From the NCBI GenBank assembly GCA_037043015.1, contig CM073325.1:15789001-15853000 (forward strand): a stretch of 64,000 nucleotides of DNA. The letters are read 5' to 3'. The DNA is from Bryum argenteum (lineage: Eukaryota > Streptophyta > Bryopsida > Bryales > Bryaceae). Made by a program: the position numbers and the translations under genes. Within the stretch, counting starts at the first letter, position 1; each line of letters opens with the position of its first letter. The notes under the pieces are model-generated. The model worked only from the letters and a program-made list of their open reading frames with translations, had not been told where the DNA came from and ran no database searches. Below, in pieces: positions 38,799-63,378 of the stretch.

Positions 38799-38809
38799 CA
38801 GGGTTGTCA

Positions 38810-38856
38810 GGACGACCGGACCAGGGGGCGACCGGTCGACCATGGTCCGGTCGTCC
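38810..38856. repeat. Subterminal hairpin, left end
   Basis: GGACGACCGGACCA (38810-38823) is the exact complement of TGGTCCGGTCGTCC (38843-38856), one base inside the terminal repeat. The GACCATGGTCCGG motif is also present near the right end at 63286-63298. Confidence 0.85.
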
Positions 38857-38910
38857 TCAGCCCCTAGGACCTGTCGGTGACATAACGGGTTTTTTATAAT
38901 TTACCTGGGG

Positions 38911-39140
38911 TAAATTACCATCCGACCGGTGGCCGACCGCACCCCCGTCCGATCCTTTGACCAGCCGACCGCACCCCCGTCCGACGCTTGGACCGGCCGA
39001 CCGGTGGCGGGTCCGGCGTTCCCTAGGCCGACCGGTGTGCGGACCGGCGAGGTCGACCGCCGACCGGTTAGCGGACCGGCGAGGTCGGCCGCCGACCGGG
39101 GTGACGACCGGCGAGGTCGGCTGCCTACGAAGGCCCGACC
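38911..39140 (+). promoter_or_regulatory. CGACCG-rich cluster upstream of transposase
   Basis: Dense CCGACCGGT / GGACCGGCGAGGTCG motifs in both orientations, GC content far above the flanks. It is followed by CAACGGTCAAATTTC repeats and then a TATA box at 39197. Translations of this stretch are low-complexity artefacts. A promoter or transposase-binding role is inferred from position and recurrence. Confidence 0.65.
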
Positions 39141-39196
39141 GGTCAAATTTCAACGGTCAAATTTCAAATTTCAACGGTCAAATTCAGGGTTGAAGG

Positions 39197-39204
39197 TATA
39201 TAAG
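39197..39204 (+). promoter_or_regulatory. TATA box, transposase gene
   Basis: TATATAAG, about 60 bp after the CGACCG cluster and 200 bp before the ATG at 39404. Confidence 0.6.
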
Positions 39205-39403
39205 AGAAGAGACACAAGGCCTCATTTCACTTCCGAATTGTGAATGCGACCCAAGGTCTCTGAGCTGCATAACTTTATGTTATGTGTCCGTTGCTTGGTA
39301 CGTATTGAGTTCGGAAGTGCAGAGTTCGTTTACGAACTCTTGACATTTTTTTCTACATATCTACTACCACGTTTGTTCATTTTGAGGTGTCTTACCTATC
39401 AAA

Positions 39404-42311
39404 ATGGCCAACAAATCATCCTCACCTTGGTTCACTGATGTTCATGAAGTACAAGGCCAACCTACCACGACCCCAACGGTCCAATGCAATCTCTGTCATA
39501 AGGGTATGAGCAAGAGGCTAGAACGGCAGCTCAGTCACCTTGGCTATGAAGGCAAGCGTGGGGTCCGCCTTAATACAGTAACGCTTTGTCCAAAATTGAA
39601 CACCCGAGTGATGGATTTATTTCGAAGATGTGACGGGCGGTTCCCTCCACATAATGGAGAAATGAGTAGTGCACATTCAATCCCATCGTCATCAGAAGTT
39701 CCGAATGTTGGCACGCCAAGGTCCACTGGTGGAGACTCTTGCGTGGGATCCTCTCAAGCTACCCCTTCAATTCCATCAACACCTTTAGTTGGATCAATCT
39801 CCACCGTTCCTAACTTCGCGGGACAAGTGAGGGTTGGTGGGCATATCAGTAGGGCGATGAAACAATCTGTGATTGAAGAGGGTTTTGCTGAAGCGGATAG
39901 GCGGGAACTAGACATACTTTGGGCAAAGTTTTTCTATGAAGCAAACGTACCGTTTGCTGTAGCACGGAATCCCGCCTTCAAGGAAGCTGTAATGAAAATT
40001 GCGTCTTTCCGAAAACCATATGTCCCTCCTTCTTACCATGACATTCGGACAAGGTTGTTGGGACAAGTAAAAAGTGATCTAGAAGGAAAACTAGATAGTA
40101 GACTCAAGGAGAGCCTTCGGAAGTTCGGGGAAACTTTAGCCATGGATGGATGGTCATCTGTGAGTAGTCGCCCTCTTGTGAATGCAATGCTAGTGACTCC
40201 TGCTGGAGAGCTTTTTCTTGGCGCCGTCGATACTACTGGCAAAGAAAAGACAGCAATGTATATGGCCTCTATCATGGTCAAGTTCATCAAACAAGTTGGC
40301 CCCGAGAACGTTGTCCAAGTCTGCACGGACAACGCTTCTGTAATGATTAATGCCTCTCGATTAGTCGTTGAGGATTATCCCATATATTCATTCAGGGATG
40401 CGCCACGCATGCGATGGATTTGTTGTTGGAAGATTGGGGAAAGGCGTCATGGGTGAAAGAAACTTTGGAAAAGGCCAAGGGCTTCGTCAAGTTCATTAAA
40501 AATCGTCAAATGCCTTTAGCCGTGTTTCGTAAACACGAGACAAGGTTTAGCCTATTGATGCCTGGAAAAACAAGATTTGCGTGCAATTTTATTATGATAG
40601 ATCGCTTATTGCAGGTTCGGGAATCATTGGAGCAAACTGTTGTAGATCCTCAGTGGTTGTCATATGCCACGAAGAAGTCTCTATCAGCTAGAGATAAATT
40701 ACTGGAGTCCCGCAACTTAAGAAAAGTGGTTTTGGATGACGTTTTCTGGAAGCGTTGTACAAACTTCCAAGATATGGACATATGGTGGCCCCAGTAGTGT
40801 ATGCTCTTCGGGAATTTGACAGCAAGGAGCCTTGTACGGGCAAGGCTTTGCATATCGTTCGTCAGCTCGAGAACCATGTACTGACGCTATCTACAGAACC
40901 ATTTTCTCTCCCGACGGATTTAGCGGACATTGCGAAGGAGAACTTTTACGCAAGGAAAAAGATGATGACAACAGATCTGCATTGTGCTGGTGCACTTTTG
41001 AATCCTTATTTACTACATGACAAAGAATTAGCAGATGATACTGAGGTCTAGCATGGGTGCAGACGTGTTCTAAAAGCTCTATGTGCTCCGGGCACTTATC
41101 ATGATGTGGCGAATGAATATATGGCATTTCGAATGAGGAGTGCACCATTTCATGAGATGTTGGATCCTAATGAGTCGAAATGTTCTCCCTTTGTTTGGTG
41201 GGAAATTGAAGGGTTTGTTGAAAAACTCCTTGCTCTGATTGCAAAGCGAATCCTAGCACAAACAGTGTCATCGTCGGCGTGCGAACGCAATTGGAGCAGT
41301 TACTCTTTCGTTCACGATAGGAAGCGGAATCGGTTGCTACCGGAAATGGCTGATGCCTTGGTCTTTGTATACACCAACTCAAAGTTACTTGCAAACGCAA
41401 AGTTAACGGATGAGAAGAGGTGGTACTCGGAGAACTTGGATGTAGAGGATCGTGACGTACGTGACTCCGAGGATGAAGAAACCCCCCATAACTCAATTGG
41501 TGAAGGCCTTGCAGATCACGTTTTAGAGGACCTAGAAGATGACCTCAATAGCATCCCCGCTATGAGCTTGCAAGATGCTTTGAACGTCCCGACCACCACG
41601 TATGACTTTGTTGACGATGATGCTGAGGCGGATGATCCAGATGAATTGTTGCCCCTAGCTCATTTACCACGGTTTCAAAAGGATACCGACAAAGTCACTT
41701 GTGATAATACCCCTCGTACCGGACTAACTCCAAATACGGACGAGAATGTGGTTCTGAATGAGAAAATTGTGGGGGATGATACTCATGGCGGTACAGTAAC
41801 GTTTGATCCAATCACGGGAAATATGACGTCCGCCACTAGGGACGAACCTGCGTTGCCTGCTGTTGCCTCTCGGTCTCTATTTCAAAAATGTGCTGTAGAG
41901 GTCCCTACAGTGATGGAGAAATCTTCCAAACGTTTGGTGTCCCTTTCAAATCAAGTGCGACCCCGAGCACTACGTACCAATTCCGGCGGAATCTCTAGTG
42001 ACTCGGATGTACCGCTTCTTCAATTGGGATACAAAAACCTTCCAGGAGGTTCAGGGCTACGGAAGAAGGAGCCTCCAAGAGTTATGACGAAATGTAAAGC
42101 TCCAATGCTTCCGTTTCTTCATGATAAACCGAAGAATCCCCTTGATGCCATTGAGAATGCGGGAAAATTCAAGATCATTCATCCGGGAAGTCACAAACAA
42201 AGAATCAAACAAGAAGTTAGTACCGATTTCGAAGATGACCCTACGGGATCTAGCGGAGCTGAAGTCAAAGGAGACAGCGATTACGCAATTTCCACCGATG
42301 TGGATGAATAG
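39404..42311 (+). pseudogene. hAT transposase (BED finger, DUF659, hAT-C), disrupted
   Basis: ATG at 39404. A BED-type zinc finger (CNLCHKGMSKRLERQLSHLG) is followed by the DUF659 core with catalytic-type LAMDGWSS and VQVCTDNAS, then the dimerisation region QTVSSSACERNWSSYSFVHD. The D, D and E positions expected for the hAT RNase-H fold are present. An acidic tail of about 260 residues follows. Three lesions break it: a one-base loss near 40380 (homology resumes as CATHAMDLLLEDW), a second frameshift at about 40757-40785, and an in-frame TAG at 41049-41051. It would cut and paste elements with CAGGGTTGTC ends; the 8-bp duplications agree. The short lesion list means it decayed recently or carries assembly errors. 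It is convergent with the RING gene. Confidence 0.88.
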
Positions 42312-42586
42312 AAATTAATTACATGCTCAGACACGTAGTAGAGGTCTAGCATACTTCGTGTATGTTTCGGGTAGTATAGCTCTTGAAACTTTATTACCAA
42401 ACAGTTGATGTGTTCGTACTTTATTTTGTCTGAAAATGTTGGTGAATAGTCAACAAAAGACTATTACATCATAAGAAATAAAAAACTTCATTACAAAAAC
42501 CATGCATTACAAATCCAAAATGGTATGCAACTCTATTCTGGGAACTATAACCGTTCTAAACCGTCTATGCTTCTATTGGATTTCTA

Positions 42587-45500
42587 TTACATCGCAACTG
42601 AATGCTCTTCTGTATCAATCGTATGTGCTATACTACGAGTCCGGGGTCTTTGGCTTGGTCTAGCAATCCTACCGCCCTCATCGTATTCTTGATCCACTGC
42701 AGCAATTTCTCTGTTGTTGCCCGACATCCAACTCTCGTCGCTCTCATTGCCATCATCCCTTTTCCGTTTCTTGGGTGGGTTAGCATTTTTGGAACGGAAG
42801 ATTTTCATGGCCTCCTCGATTCGTCCCACCACATCCTTCACAAAGGAGTCCTCTGCCGTGATAGACACCAATAACTCCGGCTTGGGGTCCTTGATCATTG
42901 TCGTCCAATGAGTAATGATGTTCTTAATGCGCCACTCAAATTTCTCTACCGCCTCCTAGAAAGTACAGTGTGCGTCTTTGAAAGATTCCTCCTTCGTTGA
43001 AATCCGTAAGTGTGCGGCCTCTTCCAATTTCGCTAGGACTAAAACCCTTCCAATCGGGCTATCATCGTACTTCTTGTACTCCTCTTCAAACTCAATGTCA
43101 CTTGTTACCTCATGCCACAAACCATCTTCTCCCTTCTCCACTCTCTTTGGAGGGAATCGGAAGAAACGATTGTGTTGATCTCAATGTCCTCCAAAGTTGC
43201 GGCAAAACATCTCTCTTTGCTCGCTGTCTTCAATATCTCGCGCCCTAATCTCCACCTCGTAGTCACGTGTCATCCAAAGCAATGGATCTGTCTCGCCTAT
43301 ATACTGCTTGAGGAGCTGGTGCTTTGATGTTGAACTATCCCATTCAAGTGCTTTCCCCCACTCACGAAAGTTGTGAAGTTTCTTTGGAAGTTGATCCAAA
43401 GGGAGATTCCATCGGTTGAACTCGTGCCCAGGTGGCATGACATCGCGCATCCCCATCACTTCGTAAAATCTCGTGCTAATTGGAGAACGACATATAGGAC
43501 ATGATGATTTTCCCCGGGCAGCGCTTGCTATGCAAGTAACATGAAAGTTATGGCCACATTGGCCCAGTGTGTACGCTCCTTCTGAACCGAAATGATATCG
43601 GCACATGCCACATTTTTCCTTCAGTATTGTCGGGGGGGGGGGTCGCATGTGTAAACTATATTTCGATTTGATTCCACAAAATGCGATGAGAATGAGTTGT
43701 ATGGCACCCATCCTTCTGCCACTTCCAAACTCCAATCAATATCATTATCTTTTCCCATCCGATTGAAATTTGTTCGCTCCATCATCTCCTCCACATCACC
43801 CCAAATAGTGACCTTAGTAGGTTCGTGTTCTCGTAATATTTCGTATTTTTTAAATTCCTCCAATGATGTATTCACATGTTCACTCGAACCATATGATTTG
43901 GCGGCGATCTTCTTCAGATCATGTTGTGCCTTTGAAACCATGGCCTCCCTATCTTGAAGTCGGTGAACCCAAGCCAACCAAGGCAATATGTTCTCTTCGC
44001 GTGGTGTATTATCCACATTTCTTAATGCCATTCGTATGGATTCTAGTTCAGCTCGTGCCTCATCTCTCTGCTTCATCATTGCCTCCAATTGCATTTCCAA
44101 TGTTTTTTTAGGAAATTGATTATGTAGGCAAGCTTTTCCCTTCGAATGTGTATCATCCTCTACACGCACGCCTCTCCTTCCATTGTCCTCCAATTCCGTA
44201 TCATCTTCCAAATTGATGATTTGTTTTCCTTTATCCTGCGTATTGAACCGTACTTCCTTCTCATGAATGTCCTCTGCTGTCTCAGTAGGCCCAGGCTCGC
44301 GTGATGGAGTACCTTTCATCTCCGGGCCATCACTCTTATTATTCCCATCATAATTAGACAGGAAAAGATCACCTTCTCTTTCGATCCTTTCTTCAATTTT
44401 TGAAATTGGAGAAATATCTTTTGGGTTTAGGGGAAGATCTTCCACATCACCTTCTTCGGGAGCATTCAAAATGTTCATCGCTTCCTCCATGAGTTTGCAG
44501 TAGTACGGGGATTTTCTAGCGGTCATATCCATTAAGTTTGAAAAATTGAACCACCTTTTCAATCACAGCAATTGCTACGGAATACTTTGCATCAAGACTA
44601 CAAATATACATCTCATCCTTTAGCCTTGCTTTAAGAAGCGGGAGAAATTTCTCTGATAACTTCTCGTAGTCTATAGCTGCGTCTAGCATTCGAGGCATCA
44701 TTAGGGCAAAAGTTTGAGACATTTCTAAAAACTGTGGAGCCATAGAAGCAAGAACTCCAGTCCTCGATTTCATATCGGCCCCAACTTGCAATATTGAGGT
44801 TTTTTTCGTCTCTTCCCACTTCACCTTCGTCACACCATCCGAAGCCTCCTCCTCGAATATGAATTTCGCCATTTCTTCACAATAAGTGAGAAACTCTCTC
44901 AGTTTCTTGTTGCTTGGTACTCCTTCATATATCTCTTCGAAATTTGACATCCAATCCTTCTCCATCAGAGGAGTAATGGAATCTGGCATGGATGTTGTTT
45001 CCATTGGTTTACTTAGCCCTGCCTCATTCAATTTTGGATTCGAGAAGGTCAAATTTAGGCCATTGGGAATAATAGGGTTATCTGGAATGAGAGGGGAGAG
45101 TACCTCTTCCACTACATTCTCTAAGTCCCCCACCTGATCTTGCACTGCATTCGCCTCTTCCAGTGACTGTTCTCCAACTGCTTTTACATCCCGAAGCCTA
45201 TCAACTGAAGATTGTTCGTTTGATAGACCATCCGTGGCAAGAGGAATGTCTTTATCCTTTGTAACGACATTCTCATCATCTGTTGTATCCTCCACAGCCT
45301 TTGTTTTTTTTTTTTTTTCCTCAAAAGCTCCAAAATATGCTTTGTCAAGGCTGATTGCGGATCAAAGCAATCTGGGATATGCTTCTGCTTCCTCTCAATT
45401 CGAAGCGGATGTTGAGTATTAGTTTGGTACGTGCTCCAATTTATCTTCCGCTGCAGTATCAACTGAGCATACACCATTGCCAACAATTGGTAACAAAAGT

Positions 45501-45867
45501 ACCCTTTTGTTTTGGCACGATCCCCAAACAAGGCCCGCCATACTTCCTCTGCACGGTGGATAAAGTGATCATCCTTGCATGTTGCCGGGTTGCAAGAAAA
45601 GTTCTTAGTATGAACTGTATGACATTCTTTAAGCCAAAGTTTGCCAATGTGAAACATCTTCACATATTTCTTGCAAATTTGAGCGGTCCAATACTCCGTC
45701 ACCTCCAGTTCCCAACCGCGTTCCGCTTTAATGTCTTCATTCTCTAAAATCTCCCAATTGAGCCCATGAGTTGCACCTTTTTGTTTATTCCTCTTCTTAG
45801 GCGCCTCTGCTGATATCATTGAATTCTCCACCTCCATACTCGTGTTCACGTTCTCAGTCGACGTCAT
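42587..45867 (-). pseudogene. Transposon-borne RING-H2 protein, disrupted (~1,090 codons)
   Basis: The likely ATG is at 45867 (MTSTENVNTSME). The N-terminal module contains ICKKYVKM, an NWSTY motif and several Cys/His. A long acidic, partly coiled middle follows (RDEARAELESIRMALR). The RING-H2 finger is at about 43495-43625: CGMC, then GQCGHNFHVTC, then CPIC, all eight ligands present. The C-terminus has a basic PPKKRKRDD likely nuclear signal. Frames change near 45310 (poly-T run), 44530 and 43635 (poly-G run); in-frame stops lie at 43181 and 42956. RING-H2 domains normally recruit ubiquitin-conjugating enzymes; the target is unknown. It converges on the transposase and has its own CGACCG cluster and TATA box upstream. 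I do not recognise the full-length family. Confidence 0.7.
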
Positions 45868-46040
45868 CGTGCAAGTATCACCGAAAGATCCACGGGACGA
45901 AGTAGCCGCAACAAATGTGAAAAAAAACCGACCCCCTTCTCCTCTCCAACTAGAATGCAGCAGGCGCCTTAGCAACTGGAGAACATTCGAATTGGGTTAC
46001 CATGAGGAGAGAAAGTGGTGCAAAATGAAGCCGGACGGCC

Positions 46041-46047
46041 CTTTATA
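46041..46047 (-). promoter_or_regulatory. TATA box, RING-H2 gene
   Basis: TATAAAG on the minus strand, between the GC cluster and the ATG at 45867. Confidence 0.6.
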
Positions 46048-46051
46048 GTGC

Positions 46052-46315
46052 CCTCATGCCGGACCGGCCGACCGAACCGCCGACCGGGCCTGGCCGTCGG
46101 AAGCCCCGGACCGGCCGACCGATCGCTGGACCGGCCATCGGGCAATTCGGGACTGGCCGACCGATCCCCCGGACCTGCCGACCGATTCCCCGGATCGGCC
46201 GTCGGGCCATTCGGGACCGGCCGACCGATTGCCCGGACCGCCCGGGCCTGGCCGACCGACCCTGACCGCCGAACCTTCGCACGCCGGGCCTGGCGGACCG
46301 GCCGCCGGCCGCCGC
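46052..46315 (-). promoter_or_regulatory. CGACCG-rich cluster upstream of RING-H2 gene
   Basis: About fifteen GGCCGACCGATC / GGACCGGCC variants in 260 bp, directly upstream (minus strand) of a TATA box. The same design as at 38.9 and 62.9 kb. Confidence 0.65.
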
Positions 46316-47667
46316 TCTAAACCCTAACCCAAAAATTTCTTGGGCCCGTGTACAAACCCTAGGCATCAACCAATGAGAATCTATCTCTCTCTAAAATTTT
46401 AAATTTGGGCCCTCGAAGTGGGCATTAGGACTTTATATTGCAAGATCCACTCTATGACCCACTTTGTAAAGTAGAGCTAAAGTTAAGGCCCACTTCAAGT
46501 CCAAGTGGGCTCAACTCCAAATGGGCCCAACTTCAAATGGCCTCTAATATAAAGTGGCCGTAAAAAGTGCCAAAACCCCTCAAAACCACCTTGTTATGAA
46601 TTTCACTTCAATCTGAAAATGATGAAATTTCGTAAATTCTCTTGTGTACTAATACATTATCATCTCGCAATCTATGAGGCTTTATGAATCAAACTTTTAT
46701 CCACATGACTTACAACAATATGTGTATTAGGGCATCCTCAATGGACACTAAATAAACGCCCTCTGTACCAAATTCTATCTTTTGAGTGATTTTGAATTAG
46801 AAAATACAATTACCATCGTTAGAAGCGCATGTAAATAAACGTGAGATAGATCTCAAGAAAAAAGATATGTGGATAAAACTTTCTTCCCAAATTGTGTAAA
46901 CTTTCTCTACCAATTTGAAGTTGTTTTTTTTAGGTTTTTTTTAGGTTTTTTTTTAAAATTAGACCTAGTTGCTTAAAAGTTCCTACTTAACCATCTCCCT
47001 TGGAACGAATTTATTATACTAATAGGATAATTATAAACTGGTAATTATTGTTCTTTAACAAGATAGATAGATAGAAACTCCAATTTTCATATTGAATATA
47101 ACAATTGTATATAAATATAACCAAAGAACTCACAACAAAAAATAGTCTCTACCTTCTTACCCACGAGTTTATACATCCACCTAAAAGTCTTTCTCTAGTC
47201 TTTTACTTTCCTATTCTAAAAATAAATCTTATCAATAGATCAATTAGAGAAATCTAACTCTTTATGTATTTAAACTATTTATATTTAAAGCAGGATGTGT
47301 ATATTTATGTATATACTATGTATTAATAAATTAGAATATGTATATTTATGTATGTACTTTCTATTTTCAAAGTGGAATATGTATATGAAGGTATTTATTA
47401 TATATAATATATATTATAATTGTATTGTATTATGGTTGAATATATAATAAATATATTATTTACTATATACATGTATACTATGTATATTTATCTATTTACT
47501 TTTTGATTTATAGTTCTAGCACACAAAGTAGAATTGATTTGCTTTAGATAGATAGATAGATAGATAGATAAGAACTCCAATCTCCAATAAGAGATTGGCG
47601 TGAATATAGCGTCTGTTCGTAATGTCTTTACCTCAATGGCCACAGGACAAAGAGGTAACAGAGCAAA

Positions 47668-48645: not shown

Positions 48646-49487
48646 CTACTAAATTAGATACACAACGATGGAGTTATTTCTAAATGCACATCAAATAATA
48701 GACCATAAAATGTGGACAACTTAAGGGCTAAATAGGAAGTTTAAATATTGACTAATACGGTAATACCAAAGTTATGAAGACAAGATACTCACACATGCTC
48801 ACCTACATTTAATATATACTTAGATCTCTCCAATGTTAGACATAAGTATACTCTCATCAAGGAATAGCTAAAAAGTCTCGAACGTGATATGAGAGGATTT
48901 AGGGCCACCTCAAAGTGCACAATAGGGGCCAAGCCATTAATGGGGCCAATACATGAGAACATCTCGTTGTGAGAATGGATCAATTTTTGACAAAAGTTGG
49001 GACATTCAAGAAATGAATGTCAATTCATGGCCTAAAAGCGTTTTCCTTGATTCAAATTAAGAAAGAATATTTAAAAAAAATAAAATCAATGAGAACAAAT
49101 CAAAAGCATGGACTCTAGCTAATAATAAGAATTGGCCCCATAACCTTCGTTTTCCTTCTAGAAATGGGCACCAACTCCCAACACCTTCACAAATGGGGGA
49201 ATTGGCATGGGAGATATGTTGGCCTTGACTCCTCTTGTAAAGAGTCCCTTATTATAGAATTATTTAGAGCCTAGAGTATCTTTGTCATAAAACATTCTTG
49301 TTTCTGACAAAGAGATCTTCCCGACATTCCCTTGTCAGAACATTCCCTACCCTGATTTAGACGCCACGTGGACGAGAGACGCTAAATATAGAAATGCAAA
49401 TATGCAATGCAGGGAAGTGAGAGAAGTTGTGGAAACGGGGAGTTTTGGGGAGAAGCAAGAAGAGGAGGGGGAAGGAGGTACGCGGGC

Positions 49488-49690
49488 CGACCGACCGATA
49501 GTCGACCGGTCGGTCGCCAGGCCGACCGTAGGCCGCCCGGTCGGTCTCCGGGCCGGTCCCTGGTCGCTAGGCCGGTCCCCGGTCGCCTGGTCGGTCGGTA
49601 GGCCGGTAATGCGGTCCCTCAGATCGGTCGGCCGGGCACGAGCGGCCCAGATTGACCGATCGTACATCGCCATCGAGCCGGCCGCTTGGG
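49488..49690 (-). promoter_or_regulatory. Fifth CGACCG-rich cluster, no intact gene attached
   Basis: GGCCGACCGACCG, GTCGACCGGTCGGTCG and similar motifs. On the minus strand it is followed by a pyrimidine-rich leader and a TATA-like CTATATTTAG near 49384-49393, but no intact gene follows. It may belong to a gene that has decayed in the AT-rich centre. Confidence 0.5.
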
Positions 49691-50082
49691 GTTTTCTTTT
49701 TTCTTTTTTTTTTAATTCTTAGTTTCCAATGTATTACTGAAATCTTTCAAAATTTCATAGGATCCTTTTTAAATTTTAATCCCTCTCAGATTTTTGTTAT
49801 TAGATTCTCAGTGATTATTACACAATGAAAAAAGGAATCCTATGTTGATTTGTGAAATGCTATATATTCTTTATTCACGGATAGGGTTTAGTGGTTTAGG
49901 GTTTAGGGTTTAGGATTTAGGTTTATGGTTTACTTGGAGATTTCATAATTGCAGTAGCTTTGTTATATGAATTTTCACTTCAATCTAGAAATGATGAAAT
50001 TTCGTAAATTCTCTTGTGTACTAACATATTATGATCTCGTAATCTATGAGGCTATATGACTCAACTTTGGGCCACATGACCT

Positions 50083-52380: not shown

Positions 52381-52595
52381 CCTGCCGACAGGGTTGTCTT
52401 ATTAGACACAATTTTCGGAATGTCTGTCTGATTTGTCGTATTGGACATGTCTGTTAAACGTCGAGTCGACGAAAATGTCGACCGTACCAAAAATTACATA
52501 GTAAAAAACTTGCTGAGATTTACCTTGAGGTAAAAAGCTATTTTCCTACGTGGCGTAGGGTTGATAATGACGTGGAAAATCAAAATACACGTCAC

Positions 52596-52860
52596 AGTGG
52601 GCGACCTCGCTAGGCGACTGACGGTCGCACCGGGGCGAACGTCGGTCGCCTACTGCGATCGCCGATCGCCCTGGCAACCGCGAGAAGGCGACCGGCGGTC
52701 CAGTATGGAGACCGGTGGTCGCCCTGGCAACCGCTTTTAGGCGACCTTAGGGGCAAGGACAAAGTGTCCGGGAGCCACTCTGGACCCCTCCTGTTGGGGC
52801 GACCGCCGATCCAGGTAATGGCCGAACGTAGCTCATAGGGCGACCGGCGGTCTACCCTCT
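52596..52860. repeat. GCGACC/GGTCGC cluster of nested element (left)
   Basis: GC-rich run of GCGACCGGCGGTC, GGTCGCC and CGATCGCC motifs leading directly into the first AT-rich body at TTTGAAGAGCCATAAC. Confidence 0.75.
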
Positions 52861-52870
52861 AGAAACGAAG

Positions 52871-53520
52871 GACATGAACTTTGAAGAGCCATAACTTTTT
52901 CATTCGGACTCTGATTTTGACGAAATCACTTGGGTTGGGTCCCAAATTAAGTCTAGTTTATGTCGTAAAAATTGCAGACCCATACAATTAAGTATGAAAA
53001 AATGGCATGCATTTTAGTGAAGGGAGTATTTGTTTCTTGGGTTTTTAAACATTTGGCATGTTTTACCATTGCAAGCCTATTATGTGACATCAAAAAGGTT
53101 TTTGCATGATGTGTTTTAGACAAGTGTGATCTTTAGATGCATCCCACAATCTTTGTAGTTGGAAGTATTTTGATCCAGATAGTTTTAGTATTGGCTTTGC
53201 AATTATATTTCTACGATGAAAAAAGTGAAAAAGTGGATGATTTTTGAAGAGATAGATCTCCTTCAACCATCGTTAGATTTTGAATTTTCATTTTAGAATG
53301 GATTCCAATTAGAGTGTTGTATTGGTGATAGAAACCTCGATTCATTCGAAGATATATTGAAGATAACGTATAATTTGAGTGCTAGGGATCTAGGTTTGGA
53401 CTATATTAATCACTTTATAGAATATTTGGCAGTTCTTATCATTGCAAGGCTACTATTTGAGCCATAGGGAAGTCCAAGATGTATAGGGAAATAGAGAGGG
53501 AGAGTAGTATTTATACTTTG
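52871..53520 (-). repeat. AT-rich body A with TATA box
   Basis: Homologous to the interior of the 35,765-36,744 element. Minus-strand TATAAA at 53510-53515 follows a small GGACCGGCGGTCGCC cluster (53522-53560), so a transcript would run leftwards through the body. No conserved coding frame. Confidence 0.75.
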
Positions 53521-53560
53521 CTTGGACCGGCGGTCGCCTGAGCAACCGACGATCGCCTAT

Positions 53561-54640
53561 GTGGTTGAATTTATATGGGGATATTTGAATTGCGGGGTTT
53601 GAAGCACGGGGGCATATGTAAATATATAAGCAAAAAGGGAGTGGAAGGGGTGTTGATAACTTTCCTAGGTGATTCATATTGTGTAAAAAATATGGTATAA
53701 ATCTTAGGGTCACAGGACGAACGAAAGTATTTTTCCCGAATTTCTAAAAATTAAATAGTCATGTGAAAGTAGGCGGTGTGGGCACATGCATACGAAAACA
53801 AAGTGGGGAATGTAATTTGAACATTTGGACTACACTAAATAGGTACATTAGTGTTAGATTTTTATAAGATTTGAAACTGCTACAAGTTTTTACTTTTGGG
53901 ATAAATTTTTTACCAAGAGTATCGATTCCAATACTATGTAAGGATCCCCATCTTCACCATTGTAGAGGGTACAAATATTGACTAATAGTAAAAACTTATA
54001 GCCTATTTATGTAAATTAGTGTATCTAACACTAATCTACCTATTTAGTGTAGGTAATATGGATCATATAAAAATGATGGAACCATCAAAAATATTATAGG
54101 ACAACTTTGTACTAAAAATAAGAAAAAATCCATAAAGGGGTAAGGGGACAATTTAAACCCTTAGACTACCTAATGATGACCCTATGGAAATGATGGTGTT
54201 ATTTAGAAAATCGTGGGGATATGTCAGCTATAGGTCATCATTTACTTGTAAGTCATTTGAATGAGTAGAATATTGAATGATATACGGAAAATAGATTTGT
54301 GGAAAGGGATAACGATTTTAAAACTTGTGTTGACTAAAAAATACCTTATAAAAATTATGAAAGAACAAAATTTCCCGTAAGAGAAACGTATCTACATGTT
54401 ATGATTTACTTTGACTTTGTAGGATGCTAAGTAATAGAGGAAGTTATACTAAAGGGGGGAGGAGGTGGTTTTATTATTTTCTCTAACCGTATTAAATATA
54501 TTAAATCATGAAAGAAGCCACATGGAACTTGGATTTACATGGAAGGAAATACTTGGTGTTAATTTGATTCAACCCTGGCATGGTATAGGATACTTGGTGT
54601 TAACTTCATTCAAAACCTCCAAATCGCGCAACCGCCAATA
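53561..54640. other. AT-rich spacer of nested element
   Basis: No gene recognised; unique-looking AT-rich sequence between body A and the second GC cluster. Confidence 0.45.
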
Positions 54641-55028
54641 CAGCGGATGCACGAACGTCGGTCGCTAGGGCGACCGCCGATCCAGTTGGTGGGCGAACGA
54701 CGCTGACAGGGCGACCGGCGGTCTACGTGATGGGCAAGCACTCAAGGAGAAAGTGTCCGCGAGCTTCCGCGCACCCCCTCCTGATGGGGCGACCGCCGAT
54801 CCAGCCGATGGGCGAACGTCGGTCGCTTGGGCGAACGTCGGTGGCTAGGGCGACCAGCGGTCTACGTGATGGGCAAGCACCCAAGGAGAAAGTGTCCGCG
54901 AGCCTCCGCGCACCCCTCCTGACGGAGCGACCGCCGATACAGCAGATGGGCGAACGTCGGTCGCTAGGGCGACCGCCGATTCAGGTGATGGGCGAACGTA
55001 GCTCATAGGGCGACCGGCGGTCTACCCT
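54641..55028. repeat. GC cluster with tandem ~150-bp units
   Basis: Alternating GGGCGACCGCCGATCCAG, ATGGGCGAACGTCGGTCGC and AAGGAGAAAGTGTCCGCGAG segments, repeated in a roughly 150-bp higher-order unit (54722 and 54865). Confidence 0.75.
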
Positions 55029-55690
55029 CTAGAAACGAAGGACATGAACTTTGAAGAGCCATAACTTTTTCATTCGGACTCTGATTTTGACGAAATCACT
55101 TGGGTTGGGTCCCAAATTAAGTCTAGTTTATGTCGTAAAAATTGCAGACCCATACAATTAATTATGAAAAAATGGCATGCATTTTAGTGAAGGGAGTATT
55201 TGTTTCTTGGGTTTTTAAACATTTGGCATGTTTTACCATTGCAAGCCTATTATGTGACATCAAAAAGGTTTTTGCATGATGTGTTTTAGACAAGTGTGAT
55301 CTTTAGATGCATCCCACAATCTTTGTAGTTGGAAGTATTTTGATCCAGATAGTTTTAGTATTGGCTTTGCAATGATATTTCTAAGATGAAAAAAGTGAAA
55401 AAGTGGATGATTTTTGAAGAGATAGATCTCCTTCAACCATTGTTAGATTTTGAATTTATTTTTTAGAATGGTTTCCAATTACAGTGCTGTATTGGTGATA
55501 GGAACCTCGATCCATTCGAAGATATATTGAAGATAAGGTATAATTTGAGTGTAAGGGGTCTATAACTGGACTATATTAATTGTTTTGTAAACTATTTGGC
55601 AGTTTTTATCATTGCAAGACTACTATTCGAGCCATAGGGAAGTGTAAGGTGTATAGGGAAATAGAGAGGGAGAGTAGTATTTATACTTTT
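55029..55690. repeat. AT-rich body B
   Basis: More than 90% identical by eye to body A in the same orientation, ending GAGAGTAGTATTTATACTTT, but with no GC cluster beyond it. Confidence 0.85.
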
Positions 55691-55839
55691 CCTATGTATT
55701 TTATATGAAACATGATTAAAAGTTCTGGCCTATAAGATGAAGGTAAGTAGTTTCTTTTAAATACCTAGGATTAATTAAATTTGTTGAAATGGGGTGTGTG
55801 TATAAAAGAAGGGAAGAGATGATTCAATAATGATAAAAA

Positions 55840-56402
55840 CCGCCAAATATTTTACAAAGTAATTAATATAGTCCAAACCTAGATCCCTAGCACTCAAATT
55901 ATACGTTATCTTCAATATACCTTCGAATGAATCGAGGTTTCTATCACCAATACAACACTCTAATTGGAACCCATTCTAAAATAAAAATTCAAAATCTAAC
56001 AATGGTTGAAGGAGATCTATCTCTTCAAAAATCATCCACTTTTTCACTTTTTTCATCTTAGAAATATCATTGCAAAGCCAATACTAAAACTATCTGGATC
56101 AAAATACTTCCAACTACAAAGATTGTGGGATGCATCTAAAGATCACACTTGTCTAAAACACATCATGCAAAAACCTTTTTGATGTCACATAATAGGCTTG
56201 CAATGGTAAAACATGCCAAATGTTTAAAAACCCAAGAAACAAATACTCCCTTCACTAAAATGCATGCCATTTTTTCATACTTAATTGTATGGGTCTGCAA
56301 TTTTTACGACATAAACTAGACTTAATTTGGGACCCAACCCAAGTGATTTCGTCAAAAACGGAGTCCGAATGAAAAAGTTATGGCTCTTCAAAGTTCATGT
56401 GC
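55840..56402. repeat. AT-rich body C, inverted
   Basis: Reverse complement of body B across about 560 bp, so B and C form a very large inverted repeat around a roughly 150-bp centre. Confidence 0.85.
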
Positions 56403-56519
56403 TTCGTTCGAAGAGGGTAGACCGCCGGTCGCCCTATGAGCTACGTTCGCCCATCACCTGGATCGGCGGTCGCCCTACTGAACGGCGTTCGCCTTTCAGC
56501 TGTATCGGCGGTCGCCTAG

Positions 56520-56751
56520 GGGCGAACGTCGGTCGCTCATGGGCGAACGTCGGTCGCTCATGGGCGAACGTCGGTCGCTCATGGGCGAACGTCGGTCGCT
56601 CATGGGCGAACGTCGGTCGCTCATGGGCGAACGTCGGTCGCTCATGGGCGAACGTCGGTCGCTCATGGGTGAACGTCGGTCGCTCATGGGCGAACGTCGG
56701 TCGCTCATGGGCGATCGTCGGTCGCTCATGGGCGATCGTCGGTCGCTCAGG
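56520..56751. repeat. 21-bp GC minisatellite, 11 copies
   Basis: Unit GGGCGAACGTCGGTCGCTCA(T), nearly perfect; the last two copies read GCGATCG. All six frames stay open because the period is a multiple of three, giving spurious repeat peptides. It contains the CGGTCG core shared with all other clusters. Confidence 0.95.
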
Positions 56752-56762
56752 CAACCGCCGGT

Positions 56763-57424
56763 CCAAGCAAAGTATAAACACTACTCTCCCTCTCTATTTC
56801 CCTATACATCTTGGACTTCCCTATGGCTCAAATAGTAGCCTTGCAATGATAAGAACTGCCAAATATTCTATAAAGTAATTAATATAGTCCAAACCTAGAT
56901 CCCTAGCACTCAAATTATACGTTATCTTCAATATATCTTCGAATGAATCGAGGTTTCTATCACCAATACAACACTCTAATTGGAATCCATTCTAAAATGA
57001 AAATTCAAAATCTAACGATGGTTGAAGGAGATCTATCTCTTCAAAAATCATCCACTTTTTCACTTTTTTCATCGTAGAAATATAATTGCAAAGCCAATAC
57101 TAAAACTATCTGGATCAAAATACTTCCAACTACAAAGATTGTGGGATGCATCTAAAGATCACACTTGTCTAAAACACATCATGCAAAAACCTTTTTGATG
57201 TCACATAATAGGCTTGCAATGGTAAAACATGCCAAATGTTTAAAAACCCAAGAAACAAATACTCCCTTCACTAAAATGCATGCCATTTTTTCATACTTAA
57301 TTGTATGGGTCTGCAATTTTTACGACATAAACTAGACTTAATTTGGGACCCAACCCAAGTGATTTCGTCAAAAACGGAGTCCGAATGAAAAAGTTATGGC
57401 TCTTCAAAGTTCATTTGCTTCGTT
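56763..57424 (+). repeat. AT-rich body D, inverted, with TATA box
   Basis: Starts after GCCGGTCCAAGCAAAG with TATAAA at 56773-56778 and a pyrimidine-rich leader, then the reverse complement of body A. The arrangement of cluster, TATA box, then transcribed body mirrors the cargo genes of the outer element. Confidence 0.8.
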
Positions 57425-57429
57425 CGAAG

Positions 57430-57715
57430 AGGGTAGACCGCCGGTCGCCCTATGAGCTACGTTCGCCCATCACCTGGATCGGCGGTCGCCCTACTGAGCG
57501 ACGTTCGCCCATCGGCTGTATCGGCGGTCGCCTAGGGGCGAACGTCGGTCGCTTATGGGCGATCGTCGGTCGACTTGGGCGATCGTCGGTCGCTAAGGTG
57601 ACCGCCGGTCCAGAGAAGGCGACCACCGGTCCAGAGAAGGCGACCGCCGGTCCGGCCAAGGCGACCGCCGGTCTAGATGACGCGACCGCGGTCCGATCCC
57701 TCGTGGCGCGATCGC
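57430..57715. repeat. GC cluster of nested element (right)
   Basis: GACCGCCGGTCGCC, GCGATCGTCGGTCG and four AAGGCGACCGCCGGTCCAG-type units of about 20 bp between 57595 and 57680. Confidence 0.8.
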
Positions 57716-57901
57716 AAACCGTATTCTTTGAGTAGTACACACTACGTGGCAGCCACGTAGGATGCAACGTGGACAGGGTAAATCCAGGGTAAAAAAAAGA
57801 TTCTGTAGATTCTATTAGACATTCTGAGGCTTAATGTCTGTCTGACATGTCGTGTCTGTCTGACGTCCGTCTGTGTCTAGCAAGACAACCCTGCCTGCCG
57901 A

Positions 57902-58250
57902 CCGGGCGGGGGACGGCCGACCGCCTTGGAGGCCGGCGACCGCATCGGACGGCCAGCGACCGCCCTCGCGACCCCGTTGGACGGCGGCCGTCGGATCCGT
58001 CGGACGGCGGCCGTCGGATCCGTCGGACGGCGGCCGTCGGATCCGTCGGCCGCAGTAAATCGGTCGGCCGCGATGGACCGGCCGGATCCGACAGCCGCGA
58101 TGGATCTGTCGGCCAATCGGGCGGCCTGGATCGGTCGCCATCGCGGGCATCGGATTGGCCGACCGATCCAGGCCGACCGATGGCGGAATTGACCGGTGCC
58201 GACCGAGATCGGACGGCCGGGGCCATCGGAAGAATGCCGACCGGGGGCTC
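57902..58250 (+). promoter_or_regulatory. CGACCG-rich cluster upstream of repeat-protein gene
   Basis: GGACGGCCGACCGCC, then four GGACGGCGGCCGTCGGATCC-like units (57970-58050), then GGCCGACCGATCC motifs. The nested element inserted exactly at its left edge. No clear TATA box follows; a T-rich leader precedes the ATG at 58377. Long frames on both strands are compositional artefacts. Confidence 0.6.
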
Positions 58251-58376
58251 ATTTCCCTTCACTCTGGTGTGCGCCCTGGTCGCTGTGGTTTTCCATGTCG
58301 ACTGCGCTCCTCGGAGTCCCCTCTTGATAATTGACCCCTTTTTTTGCACTTTTTTTTTTTCTTGTGGCTGAACAAT

Positions 58377-59975
58377 ATGCCGAGGGAACGACGTACTAGT
58401 GCACCCAAGGGCAAGGCCCCGGAGATGGACTGTGTAGCAACTGATGATCCAAATTGTGTCGCCGAAGATGGATGGGAAGATGAACCGGCGAGAATTTGGA
58501 ATTGCACCATGTGCAAGCGATATGTGAAGATGAAACACCTCATGAAGTTATAGCCAAGAAATCAAGCGATTATATCAGGGCCACGACGCGAAGGTCTAGC
58601 CAGCAGTTGCACAAGTCAACATTTCAAGCTTCGATATCATGAAGTGACCATTGCCGTTGGAGTACGGAATACTAGGCCGGAAATCATGTTATATTCCAAC
58701 ATGGCTATGGTTTGGGCAGAAATCGTTCTACATAAGAACGTGAATTGGAGCACCGTGGCAGGTTTGAATGTTGCCGAATTGGATCGGAGCAATGATTTCA
58801 TACCAACTAGTTGGCTTGGACCCAGTGATTGTATGCCCCTTTGGTCGAATCGGACATATACGGAGATGTCGGAAGTTCAAGATGAAGAAAGACAGTACAC
58901 CTCCAAGGAGATATGAAGGTCAAACTCGAATTTCTCAAGATACACCTCCAAGGGGATACGAGGGTCAAACAGAACATCAACAAAATACACCTCCGAGGGG
59001 ATACGAGGGTCAAACTGAACATCAACAATATACACCTCCGAGGGGATATGGGGGTCACACAACAGATGATTATAATCGCAGCAATAACAGGGGTATGGCA
59101 CCAATATCTTTTGGCATAGGAAGTGGTGGGTATTATCCCGGTAGCAATATATACGGTCCAGGAACCACTACTCCTGAGACATATAGGGCAGAGCATCCAA
59201 GGGATAAGTACCAATCCAGAGGCCAACACGATACAAGTCCGAATGCTGGAGGAAGATATATGCCAACATATCCTCGGGATACATACGAGTCAGGAGGCCG
59301 ATACGGTGGAAGGAGTGCTCCGGAGAGCTATACGCCAACATATCCTCGGGAATCTAACGATGTCCCTGGCCAATATGGTAGAGGTACCAGTAGTCCAGAG
59401 TACCATATCCCAACACATCCAAGGGACACATACGAGTCTCGAGGCCAGTATGGGAGAGGACCTAACATTCGAGAAAGGTACCCCACAACGTATCCTACTG
59501 AATCATACGATGCTCCCAACCAATACGATAGAAGACCTGAGGTTCCAGATACCTTTAAACCAACGTATCCAAGAAATACGCATGATCATCACGGCGAGTA
59601 CGGTAGAGCTATTACCAATCCCGAGTACCGTACTACAAGTCAAGCAAGAGATGAATACGAGCCCAGTTGGAATTCCCGAACAAGGATCGTGAAGAGCATA
59701 TCACTCAGTACCCATATCTCGGGTATGACCAATATGCATATGGGAGTAACGACACTCCCCCGCCACCATTCCGAATTCGTGAAGAAGAAGATGCAGAGTT
59801 TGAAAAACAACTACGAGAGGCAACAATTCAAAGTCAAGCGGAGTACATCCGCAAGCTTGAAAATGATTGTATTTACGACGAGCAGCGCTTGTATGATGCT
59901 TATTCGCGAGGGCGGTTCTCGAACCAAGCAAGGCCAAGTGGAACACATGATGATAAGGACCAGGATGAAAATTAA
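58377..59975 (+). pseudogene. Transposon-borne P/Y/G/R repeat protein, disrupted
   Basis: ATG at 58377 (MPRERRTSAPKGKAPEMD). The N-terminal part resembles that of the RING-H2 gene: CTMCKRYVKM versus ICKKYVKM, and an AMVWAEIVLHKNVNWST stretch versus AMVYAQLILQRKINWST. Then come four 45-bp units encoding PPRGYEGQTEHQQ-type peptides and about nine YPRDTYESRGQYGRG-type units, low-complexity and probably disordered. The C-terminus is charged (EEEDAEFEKQLREATIQSQA), a likely coiled coil. Lesions: TAG at 58551-58553, a frame change near 58900 and another near 59680. No known family recognised for the whole. It converges on the kinase-like gene and may be a paralogue of the RING gene's 5' half. Confidence 0.6.
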
Positions 59976-61173: not shown

Positions 61174-62661
61174 CTATTCGTAATTCGTCCAAAAATGCTC
61201 ATAAGGCGTGGGCCAATGAAACATTTCGCTAAAGCGTGAGATGATATGGGACAACCCTCCAGCGCCGTCACGGCTCTCGTTGCATACTCTATCCATGTAA
61301 AGATGGAAAGCTTGTGCAAGGTCTTCATTGGAGAATACCGAAGTATTTCGGTTTCCACGTTGCAAGCTCTCGTACGCCGTAGACATGGTCATCCCATTAA
61401 TTCTTTGTGCTATGCGGGCCGTGGCAAACTCCTCCGAAGCAATCGAGTATTTTGGAATAACCTGTAAATCCTCACCCGCTTTGTACAAGAACGCCACTCG
61501 TGGATCTACCCAATAACGTTTTCGCAGGGTCTCCACCATGTCCTCACGTTTTGTGAATGTATAAAATGATTGCATTGGTTCTTGAACTGTTGTGGAAAAG
61601 CCCCAATCGCATACTCCGATATACACTCGTGATTCATCAGCAGGGAAGTGGAGAAGGATATTATCTAGAAATATATCGTTATGGAGGTGGTGGCTCTTGT
61701 GGACCTCGTTCATGATATGCAACAACGCCCAAGCAAGCTCTATCCGTTTTTTACGGAATCGAATCAGTTGATGAGCCCGAATAACCTCGTCATCGGGGTA
61801 ATTCCCAAAGTTCAAATGTACAAAGACATCGTCACCATAATCCATATCGCGGTTCAGCATCTCTCGAATAGTCCTGCCATTCCACCAAAACGCATAGCCT
61901 TGATTCTTCACTGGATGAATGGCCACAAAGCGGATCACACCAGGGTGTCTAATCCTTATCGCCATAGACTCATTCATATGCTCCAATTTTGCCAACTCCG
62001 GTCGTGTCAACAAGTGAATGGAAGTTTTTGCAGCAAATTCCCAAAATGGTTCAATGCCTGCAACACCTTCAAAGCGAACTTTGATAATAGTACCATACCG
62101 TCCCTTCAACCTCGTGTTGTCAACTCGCATGATTTGGGCTGTATCCGGAATGGTAACCAAATGAGTCAATCGCATGGTTTGAGTTTGTCGTCCCTCAATG
62201 GATTGCCACCATGTTCCAGAGCCTCGACGGTGTGAATTCTTTGAAAATGCCCTCATTTGGGCAGAAAAACAATCAGCCCTATTCACCACGTCAACAAAAT
62301 CCTCATCACCCTCCCGAAACATCCTTCCATATTTGGCTATTACAACCTTGGGATTTCAGAGTGCATCCTTCACCCTATTTTCCATCCATCACATGAACCC
62401 CCGTTTCTCTGTCTCTGCTACCCACCTCGGATGCTGAAGCACTTCTATCATGAGTTCTCTAATTTCGAGCTTAAACTTCTCGATGCCCTCCTCCTGATAT
62501 CTCACATATTTGCTTTCCAATGCTCGAAGATCATTGGCCTCATAGAATTTGACGGTAAATTCTATTAAGAATGCCTTACAAGCGTCACCCGGGACCTCAT
62601 AAGCCTCAAACTTCTCAAACAAGTTGGCTACACCAGCCTTCCTCTTCTTCTCCTTTGGCAT
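61174..62661 (-). pseudogene. Transposon-borne protein-kinase-like gene (domain frame intact)
   Basis: One frame of 496 codons runs from ATG 62661 (MPKEKKRKAGV). It is interrupted only by two TGA codons near 62389 and 62356; from ATG 62322 it is open for 382 codons. The kinase fold is recognisable: glycine-loop-like GRYGTIIKV, AAKTS (candidate ATP-binding Lys), HNDIFLDNILL (catalytic-loop Asp and Asn, with Asn in place of Arg of HRD) and CDWGFS (in place of DFG). Catalytic residues are all present, so activity is conceivable for the shorter product. A glutamate for the C-helix could lie in KLEHMNES. No introns. Nearest host kinase family unknown. It faces the repeat-protein gene and lies beside the right end of the element with its own cluster and TATA box. 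Confidence 0.72.
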
Positions 62662-62885
62662 CTTGATCCCAGAAAAGGAAATATGTAAAGAAAGTGTAGT
62701 AAGTTTTTACAAAAGCTTTTAAAAAAAAAACAACAAAAACTCCCCCTGTATAACGAGTCACTTCCTTCCTCCAAAAGACAAGGAGCCAGTGGACAAGAAT
62801 TACAGGAAATCCCAGCCAGAGACACTCCGCATCCTCACTTCGTGAGAAATGGAGAAAAGAAGTGGAGGAAATGGAGGCCAGTCGG

Positions 62886-62895
62886 CCTTTTATAG
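62886..62895 (-). promoter_or_regulatory. TATA box, kinase-like gene
   Basis: CTATAAAAGG on the minus strand, directly at the inner edge of the GC cluster and about 225 bp upstream of ATG 62661. Confidence 0.65.
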
Positions 62896-62896
62896 C

Positions 62897-63210
62897 GGCG
62901 GACGGCCGGCCTTGGATCAGACGGCCGATCCGTCGCCTGGCCGACCGATCGGACGGCCCGCCCGGATGGCCGACGGCCGATCCGTCTGGCCGACTGATCC
63001 GTCGGCTGCGCCCGCTGCGCCGCCGACCGATCGATCCGCTTGGCCGCGCCGAATCCGATGGCCGTCGGGCATGCGGACGGCGGCCCGATCCAACGGCCCT
63101 CAAGCGCTTACAAATGATCCGACGGCCAGGATTTGCTGCGGTCGGCCGCCGTCCGATCTGACGGAGCGACCGGAGGTCGGTCGGCCAGACCGGGGATCAA
63201 ATTTTGACGG
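62897..63210 (-). promoter_or_regulatory. CGACCG-rich cluster upstream of kinase-like gene
   Basis: GGACGGCC, GGCCGATCCGTC and GGCCGACCGATCGG motifs, the closest in wording to the cluster at 57.9-58.25 kb. Confidence 0.65.
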
Positions 63211-63292
63211 CTGAGATGTGGCCAGGTGGATGATCCAACGCCCCCGTGGTTACCAGGGGACCGGGTAACTCGCATTTATCCCCCCGACCATG

Positions 63293-63327
63293 GTCCGGAC
63301 TATGGTCCCGGTCGACATAGTCCGGAC
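63293..63327. repeat. Subterminal hairpin, right end
   Basis: GTCCGGACTATG (63293-63304) is the complement of CATAGTCCGGAC (63316-63327). It is followed by AGTCCGGACTACGTCCGCGGAC palindromic text and lies 40-85 bp inside the terminal repeat. Confidence 0.8.
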
Positions 63328-63378
63328 TACGTCCGCGGACTAGGTTTACCCCGAATGTCGACCGATTTGACAACCCTG

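What the first reader, a model, noticed from the sequence alone, without database searches (positions are those of the whole stretch)
38799..63378. A single ~24.6-kb hAT-type transposon carrying cargo genes
Seen: perfect 11-bp inverted termini and perfect 8-bp flanking duplications 24.6 kb apart, with a DUF659/hAT-C transposase just inside the left end. Known: hAT elements make 8-bp duplications and have C-A-G-G-G-like ends, but autonomous plant hATs are usually a few kb and encode little beyond the transposase. Inference: this is a giant hAT lineage carrying at least three extra genes. I know of no described plant family with this layout, but I could not search.
Basis: partly seen in the sequence, partly recalled or inferred. 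Interest (0 to 1): 0.93.

Follow-up and report, generated by a model that had tools for sequence, protein, structure and literature searches.

The report
Giant four-gene jumping element in moss
The stretch is one decayed copy of a very large cut-and-paste jumping gene that carries, besides its transposase, a kinase-like gene, a RING-finger gene and a fourth gene, in an arrangement shared with other copies and with a second family in the same plant genome, which is unusual because such elements are normally small and carry little else.

Summary
In detail: perfect 11-bp inverted ends, perfect 8-bp duplications, DUF659/hAT transposase. It is not unique. Ten further copies read in full are 18.1-19.3 kb, collinear and 92.6-97.5% identical. 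Genome-wide, 79 of 90 neighbouring end pairs within 60 kb are correctly oriented left/right pairs, 34 of them 17-20.5 kb apart. The 24.6 kb is inflated by a nested 5.5-kb element with its own 8-bp duplication; the giant is 19.07 kb.

The eleven copies share four gene tracts: transposase(+), a ~1,090-codon RING gene(-), ORF C(+) and a kinase-like gene(-). A second family in the same genome (one copy read: 17.1 kb, other termini, 8-bp duplication) has the same four genes in the same order and orientation, with transposase 53% and kinase 54-55% identical. So the extra genes look like a long-kept core, not chance cargo. CGACCG-type arrays lie upstream of each gene in both families.

Best reading: an autonomous hAT lineage with its own regulatory genes; the regulatory role is inference. 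The host is probably a moss. My literature searches listed no described plant hAT of this kind.

The parts
38791..38798 (.). left 8-bp target-site duplication GGTGGGAA
38799..38809 (+). left terminal inverted repeat CAGGGTTGTCA
38799..39300 (.). left subterminal array rich in CGACCG/GACCGG/GGTCGG, upstream of the transposase; about the left 390 bp are what the 7.3-kb and 1.26-kb derivatives keep
39404..42311 (+). hAT transposase gene (DUF659 + Dimer_Tnp_hAT), broken here by frame shifts; 972-aa open frame in another copy (L022:4834-7749:-)
42587..45867 (-). RING-finger protein gene, span of ~1,090 codons; shares an N-terminal domain with ORF C; split over several frames in this copy
45868..46567 (.). 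CGACCG-type array upstream of the RING gene (21 motifs in 700 bp)
48647..49030 (.). part of the central AT-rich block; the matching piece of another copy is 85.5% identical in DNA to family 2 over 387 bp; no conserved ORF seen
49298..49798 (.). fifth, central CGACCG-type array; no gene recognised; present also in the family-2 copy
52381..52388 (.). left duplication CCTGCCGA of the nested element
52389..57893 (.). nested 5,505-bp hAT-type element without a recognised transposase, ends CAGGGTTGTCT; not part of the giant element
57894..57901 (.). right duplication CCTGCCGA of the nested element
58377..59963 (+). ORF C (approximate end): N-terminal domain homologous to that of the RING protein (31% over 122 aa, E 2e-13) followed by P/G/Y-rich repeats; frame broken here
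61174..62661 (-). protein-kinase-like gene (~495 aa), two in-frame stops in this copy; 78% identical to a Ceratodon purpureus protein
62662..63367 (.). right subterminal region with CGACCG-type array, upstream of the kinase gene; about the last 345 bp are kept by the short derivatives
63368..63378 (-). right terminal inverted repeat
63379..63386 (.). right 8-bp target-site duplication GGTGGGAA

Best explanation
This is a decayed copy of a giant, originally autonomous hAT DNA transposon (about 18-19 kb) from a plant, probably a moss. It carried four core genes: transposase, RING protein, ORF C and a kinase-like protein. Shown by sequence: the ends, the 8-bp duplications, the copy number, short derivatives that keep little but the two ends, and the conserved gene order in a second family. 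Inferred from hAT knowledge: the transposase cut and pasted the element through the terminal repeats and the CGACCG-rich subterminal arrays. Inferred, less certain: the same arrays in front of all four genes are binding sites for an element-encoded DNA-binding protein (transposase zinc finger, or the domain shared by the RING protein and ORF C). The RING and kinase proteins would then be the element's own regulators, most likely countering host silencing or controlling transposase. The confidence given is for the element and its core gene set; for the regulatory step I would say about one in two.
For: Ends and duplications: 20 of 26 two-ended family-1 copies tested have perfect 8-bp duplications. 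Size: of 79 convergent pairs, 34 are 17-20.5 kb and 21 are 5.5-8.6 kb. Collinearity of 11 of 11 copies. The column-by-column majority sequence is open over the whole transposase and kinase and over most of ORF C; the RING gene needs two frame changes and ORF C one. Transposase with DUF659 and hAT dimerisation domains in one frame and invariant D254, D315, E631 in 26 aligned sequences (the query and 25 of 51 hits; assignment as catalytic residues recalled). Kinase: K227, E246, D344, N349, D367 invariant in 32 aligned sequences (the query and 31 of 54 hits). Linkage: 43 of 49 kinase hits of 85% identity or more lie just inside a listed right end; 32 of 35 family-1 transposase hits just inside a left end, and 21 of 28 family-2-like kinase hits just inside a family-2 right end. 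Second family: same order and orientation, ends with TTCGAGAC duplication, 8 of 10 further copies with perfect duplications. Arrays: CGACCG-type motifs are 10.6 to 35 times denser upstream of the four genes than elsewhere in each of 11 copies; the one family-2 copy has 99 in 2.8 kb upstream, 12 in the central array and 4 in 13.6 kb of the rest.
Against: No expression, excision or binding data. Of 26 two-ended copies, 6 lack a perfect duplication: one with 1 mismatch, one shifted by one base, two that carry each other's flanks, two without a match. The copies read in full are decayed to some degree. Selection inside the family is weak: the dN/dS-like ratio for shared variants is 0.76 (transposase), 0.60 (kinase), 0.86-0.96 (others), while some control frames reached 0.64-0.71. 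The arrays upstream of transposase and kinase are also the two ends, so they need not be promoters. That one contig holds two genes in metagenomes is inferred from equal lengths only. Four-gene order in family 2 was read in one copy. The function of the RING, ORF C and kinase proteins is not shown; the kinase matches Pfam's Pkinase model below its curated cut-off.
Confidence: 0.93

Rival explanations
1. Pack-type capture: an ordinary hAT that once picked up host gene pieces, which are passive cargo.
For: The copies are decayed and selection within the family is weak. 7.3-kb and 1.26-kb forms with mostly unrelated interiors exist.
Against: Same four genes, order and orientation in a family whose transposase is only 53% identical; kinase residues invariant in 32 aligned sequences; the majority sequence is open over the kinase and transposase.
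Confidence: 0.05
2. The extra genes benefit the host or help spread between hosts (like cargo of fungal Starships) rather than controlling the transposon.
For: Kinase and RING domains are typical of signalling proteins; the element is large.
Against: The gene set is the same in the eleven family-1 copies and in the family-2 copy read; the arrays that mark the ends also lie before the inner genes, which suggests a system directed at the element itself.
Confidence: 0.15
3. Virus-like or Polinton-like element that was mobilised by a hAT transposase.
For: Size of 17-19 kb and several genes; a phage-tail Pfam model matched the RING protein below its cut-off (E 0.044).
Against: No relative of kinase or transposase among viral contigs (0 of 20 and 0 of 34 pattern matches confirmed); no capsid, polymerase or integrase domain in the 14 frames scanned; 8-bp duplications of hAT type.
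Confidence: 0.02
4. The two ends belong to different elements and their pairing is chance.
For: The 11-bp end is shared by other families; 2 of 20 long candidate pairs fetched were not members.
Against: 79 of 90 neighbouring end pairs are convergent left/right pairs; full-length collinearity.
Confidence: 0.005

Closest known systems
hAT superfamily (Ac/Ds, Tam3, Hermes and relatives)
   Same: 8-bp duplications, short terminal inverted repeats, transposase with hAT dimerisation domain, subterminal repeats, non-autonomous forms that keep the ends (general features recalled; the 11-bp ends, subterminal repeats and the 4.6-kb Ac are in the abstract start of PMC3260210, seen in the listing)
   Different: About four times longer than the 4.6-kb Ac, with three further genes kept in fixed order
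ToxhAT (14 kb, fungi)
   Same: Large element once called hAT, with cargo
   Different: PMC12506042 (passages seen) reports a 2-bp TA duplication and 74-bp ends and renames it ToxTA, a non-autonomous element that likely belongs to Tc1/mariner; so it is no hAT precedent
VANDAL Mutator-like elements of Arabidopsis with VANC anti-silencing proteins
   Same: A plant DNA transposon with extra genes, and short motifs arrayed as repeats in its noncoding regions (PMC5735166 and PMC10398659, passages seen)
   Different: Different transposase superfamily (recalled); no anti-silencing shown here; relation of the encoded proteins to VANC was not tested beyond Pfam scans
Starships of fungi
   Same: Large elements with cargo and the mobility gene at one edge (PMC12506042 passages)
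   Different: Tyrosine recombinase in place of a hAT transposase; cargo varies between Starships (recalled), whereas here the gene set is the same in the copies read

Membership tests
hAT superfamily | 8-bp target-site duplication | tested here: met
   20 of 26 two-ended family-1 copies perfect; family 2: 9 of 11
hAT superfamily | short terminal inverted repeats (5-27 bp, range as given in PMC12506042) | tested here: met
   11 bp, CAGGGTTGTCA
hAT superfamily | transposase with hAT C-terminal dimerisation domain | tested here: met
   PF05699 E 5.7e-11 and PF04937 E 7e-24 in two window frames; both in one 972-aa frame of another copy, E 1e-6 and 1.1e-36
hAT superfamily | conserved catalytic acidic residues | tested here: met
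   D254, D315, E631 invariant in 26 aligned sequences; that these are the catalytic ones is recalled, not tested
hAT superfamily | cut-and-paste excision | not testable with these tools
   no second strain or experiment
Starship | DUF3435 tyrosine recombinase as first gene | tested here: not met
   absent from Pfam scans of 9 window frames and 5 best-copy frames; the first gene is a hAT transposase
Polinton/Maverick | protein-primed DNA polymerase, integrase, capsid genes (recalled) | tested here: not met
   absent from the 14 frames scanned; no viral contig relatives
VANDAL/VANC anti-silencing system | Mutator-like transposase (recalled) | tested here: not met
   transposase is hAT
VANDAL/VANC anti-silencing system | motif arrays in noncoding regions of the element | tested here: met
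VANDAL/VANC anti-silencing system | encoded protein binds the arrays and removes DNA methylation | not testable with these tools
   needs binding and methylation assays

The most novel reading that the evidence does not exclude
A moss lineage of giant hAT transposons encodes its own control system: a kinase, a RING-type (putatively ubiquitin ligase) protein and a paralogous DNA-binding factor act through CGACCG arrays at every promoter and at both ends, to lift host silencing and time transposition. It would be a hAT counterpart, with phosphorylation and ubiquitin added, of the VANC anti-silencing system.
Probability: 0.35. Interest if true: 0.92.

Novelty: new variant of a known kind. Interest (0 to 1): 0.82.

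Why it matters
Autonomous hAT elements are known (recalled) as small transposons that encode little beyond the transposase. A 17-19 kb lineage that kept a kinase, a RING protein and a fourth gene in fixed order while its transposases diverged to 53% identity suggests that cut-and-paste elements can evolve multi-gene regulatory programmes. With many copies in one compact genome, a copy nested in another family, short derivatives and a flank swap, it also offers a natural test of whether size limits hAT transposition, how a large element copes with silencing, and how much giant copies rearrange chromosomes.

Tried and rejected
Rejected: chance pairing of ends; a single 24.6-kb element (a nested 5.5-kb element accounts for the excess); viral origin (patterns matched 20 and 34 stretches, none confirmed); RNA genes (Rfam 0 hits in 36000-64000; 0 tRNAs in the window); a structured RNA in the 386-bp central block (fold z -0.91 and 0.07); relatives of kinase or transposase among solved structures (0 hits each at E 0.001). 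Selection within the family was too weak to be decisive and some control frames looked as constrained.

Literature: the searches (1 listed of 1; 3 of 3; 25 of 142; 7 of 7; 20 of 37; 15 of 54; 10 of 725; 12 of 398) of the open-access library gave no title or abstract start that describes a giant plant hAT with such genes; the bodies were not read. One search was a search for VANC papers. Passages only were read in PMC12506042, PMC10398659 and PMC5735166. Repbase and subscription journals were not searched.

Left out of counts: of 20 long candidate pairs fetched two, L037/L038 and L043/L044, have ends not of this family and are not in the duplication count; of ten single ends fetched (L059-L068) one was a family left end. 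L069 is the same copy as L053/L054 and counted once. The family-1 census uses 96 left ends and the 100 right ends listed of 121. The family-2 census uses the listed left ends (first places only, of 248) and, of the 100 right ends listed of 198, those on C1-C7. Kinase and transposase searches scored 84 of 1115 and 47 of 1250 candidates, so their counts are lower bounds; rows are matches, and a few copies have two. The protein alignments took 31 of 54 kinase hits, 25 of 51 transposase hits and 4 of 9 RING hits.
Full report
OBSERVATION. The window shows CAGGGTTGTCA at 38799-38809 and its reverse complement at 63368-63378, flanked by GGTGGGAA on both sides. Just inside the left end, frames encode DUF659 (E 7e-24) and the hAT dimerisation domain (E 5.7e-11). 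The 11-bp end occurs 313 times in the 258.8-Mb genome against 49 for the reversed control.

ONE UNIT, MANY COPIES. From the first places listed, I fetched ten convergent pairs on contig C1 in full. All ten have one left-type and one right-type end, are 18,146-19,345 bp long and collinear with the window copy; pairwise identity among the eleven copies is 0.926-0.975. Ten more long pairs and five short ones were read at their ends; two of the long ones were not members. Of 26 two-ended family-1 copies tested (19 long including the window copy, 7 short), 20 have perfect 8-bp duplications. Of the other six, one has 1 mismatch (E15), one is shifted by one base (L029/L030), two (E25 and L039/L040) carry each other's flanks, and two do not match (E11, E27). 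A census with 20-base ends gave 96 left ends and 121 right ends (100 listed), 0 in controls. Of 90 neighbouring end pairs within 60 kb, 79 are convergent left/right pairs: 34 at 17-20.5 kb, 21 at 5.5-8.6 kb, 3 at 1.3-1.6 kb, 21 at other sizes.

SIZE OF THE WINDOW COPY. Compared with the other copies, the window copy has about 5.5 kb more at 52389-57893. This stretch has its own ends (CAGGGTTGTCT) and its own duplication CCTGCCGA. It is a nested hAT-type element in which tblastn found no relative of the four genes. The giant copy is thus 19,067 bp.

GENES. In the copy where it is longest, the transposase is one 972-aa frame. A RING-finger gene on the other strand spans 42587-45867 in the window; two overlapping long frames in other copies (706 and 496 aa) and the majority frames show one protein, whose four full-length relatives are 1,061-1,110 aa. 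ORF C (58377-59963) begins with a domain homologous to the N-terminus of the RING protein (31% over 122 aa, E 2e-13) and continues into P/G/Y-rich repeats. The kinase-like gene (61174-62661, minus strand) matches Pfam Pkinase weakly and below its cut-off (E 3e-4), but K227, E246, H342-N343-D344, N349 and D367 are invariant in 32 aligned sequences of down to 28% identity (the query and 31 of 54 hits). The column-by-column majority sequence is open over the transposase and the kinase; it changes frame twice in the RING gene and once in ORF C. The copies themselves are decayed. Within-family substitution ratios are only slightly below 1 for most genes, and some control frames are as low, so the case for function rests on the comparison between families.

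A SECOND FAMILY WITH THE SAME GENES. Copy E23 is inserted in a coding sequence: its joined flanks minus one duplication read in frame and resemble the RING protein. The surroundings (L072-L074) hold a transposase 53% identical over the whole 972 aa, a RING gene (29-42% to the family-1 frame P0003, 55-61% to the relative P0111), ORF C (78% in a 27-aa piece, 35% over about 250 aa) and a kinase 54-55% identical, in the same order and orientation. The host element ends in CAGGGATGTCA and CAAGGATGACA with the duplication TTCGAGAC and is 17.1 kb long without E23 (35,302 - 18,198 - 8, from those coordinates). The homology of four further copies stops sharply at the same right end. The ends of this family occur 248 times (left) and 198 times (right) with up to 2 mismatches, against 2 and 0 in the reversed controls. 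In the listed part, 44 of 50 neighbouring end pairs within 60 kb are convergent left/right pairs, 25 of them 16-18 kb, and 8 of 10 tested copies have perfect 8-bp duplications, the others 1 and 2 mismatches. So a giant hAT sits inside another giant hAT, and two families with different ends keep one gene order. The full gene order of family 2 was read in this one copy.

LINKAGE GENOME-WIDE. Kinase hits of 85% identity or more: 43 of 49 lie within 3.5 kb inside a listed family-1 right end in the expected orientation; 6 of 10 at 60-84%; 1 of 29 below 60%. Of 28 hits of the last group, 21 lie just inside a family-2 right end. Family-1 transposase hits: 32 of 35 used lie within 4 kb inside a left end. 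Both searches scored only part of their candidates.

RELATIVES ELSEWHERE. The one close kinase relative with an organism name that fits is from the moss Ceratodon purpureus (78%, M758_3G001500); one hit of 50% is labelled a Bacilli MAG, probably contamination. Among transposase hits, a Ceratodon protein (M758_UG198100, by its name on the U chromosome) is 37% identical over half the query, and one from the flowering plant Nepenthes gracilis 27%. That these are the same contigs is inferred. The host of the window is therefore probably a moss (inference).

ENDS AND ARRAYS. Two 7.3-kb derivatives (L069, L070) and a 1.26-kb derivative (L071) share about the first 390 and last 345 bp with the giant, and apart from weak internal matches of 140-210 bp in the 7.3-kb ones nothing else was found; all three have perfect 8-bp duplications. 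So these ends seem to suffice for mobility in trans. CGACCG-type motifs are 10.6 to 35 times denser in the 700-1,100 bp upstream of the four genes than elsewhere in each of 11 copies; in the family-2 copy there are 99 in 2.8 kb upstream, 12 in a central array and 4 in the remaining 13.6 kb. The arrays before transposase and kinase are also the two ends; those before the RING gene and ORF C are internal. The fifth, central array is present in both families.

HOW IT PROBABLY WORKS. Shown: structure, copies, derivatives, conserved gene set, arrays. Following from hAT biology (recalled): the transposase binds the ends through subterminal repeats, excises the element and inserts it with an 8-bp duplication. 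Inferred: the arrays before every gene tie expression to an element-encoded DNA-binding protein; the RING and kinase proteins modify transposase or host chromatin proteins. The nearest documented parallel is VANC of VANDAL elements, which binds motif arrays in noncoding parts of its own element and removes DNA methylation (PMC5735166, PMC10398659; passages).

NOVELTY. It meets the hAT features tested here; excision could not be tested. In size and gene content no counterpart showed in the listings (titles and abstract starts only). The one large 'hAT' with cargo that I met, ToxhAT, has been reclassified for its 2-bp duplication (PMC12506042, passages).

Noticed in passing
G000:C1:39512002-39530488 (L025/L026) and G000:C1:39932360-39952894 (L039/L040): Two giant copies 0.4 Mb apart in the same orientation carry each other's flanking 8-mers (ACAATATC/TGTGTACC and TGTGTACC/ACAATATC), as expected after recombination between copies.
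   Followed up: partly
window 48647-49030 (L017:9296-9681:-): A central AT-rich noncoding block is 85.5% identical in DNA between the two families over 387 bp, other central pieces about 68-90%, against 66-77% in the longer alignable coding pieces. The pieces occur in scrambled order in family 2; no ORF seen, no Rfam match, no strong fold. A genome search with it scored 40 of 348 candidates, 97-100% identical.
   Followed up: partly
window 52389-57893: Nested 5.5-kb hAT-type element with long internal inverted repeats (765 nt, 98%) and an array with 21-bp spacing.
   Followed up: partly
G000 left ends at C1:32252423, C2:22028954, C4:3620435, C7:742623, C11:6617487: Five family-1-like left ends share the variant CGGGGTTGTCGGGACGACCG, apparently a subfamily with a changed left terminus.
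   Followed up: no
L062, L063, L064 (C1:6117610, C1:21625461, C1:22436626): Another family begins CAGGGTTGTCAGGCCTAGTC, and the three ends read share the flank AGGTCTGA (or its complement), suggesting a target preference or a larger repeat.
   Followed up: no
protein P0022, MAG 'Bacilli bacterium' IMZ40_01335: A relative of the kinase (50%) is filed under a bacterial MAG; probably plant contamination.
   Followed up: no
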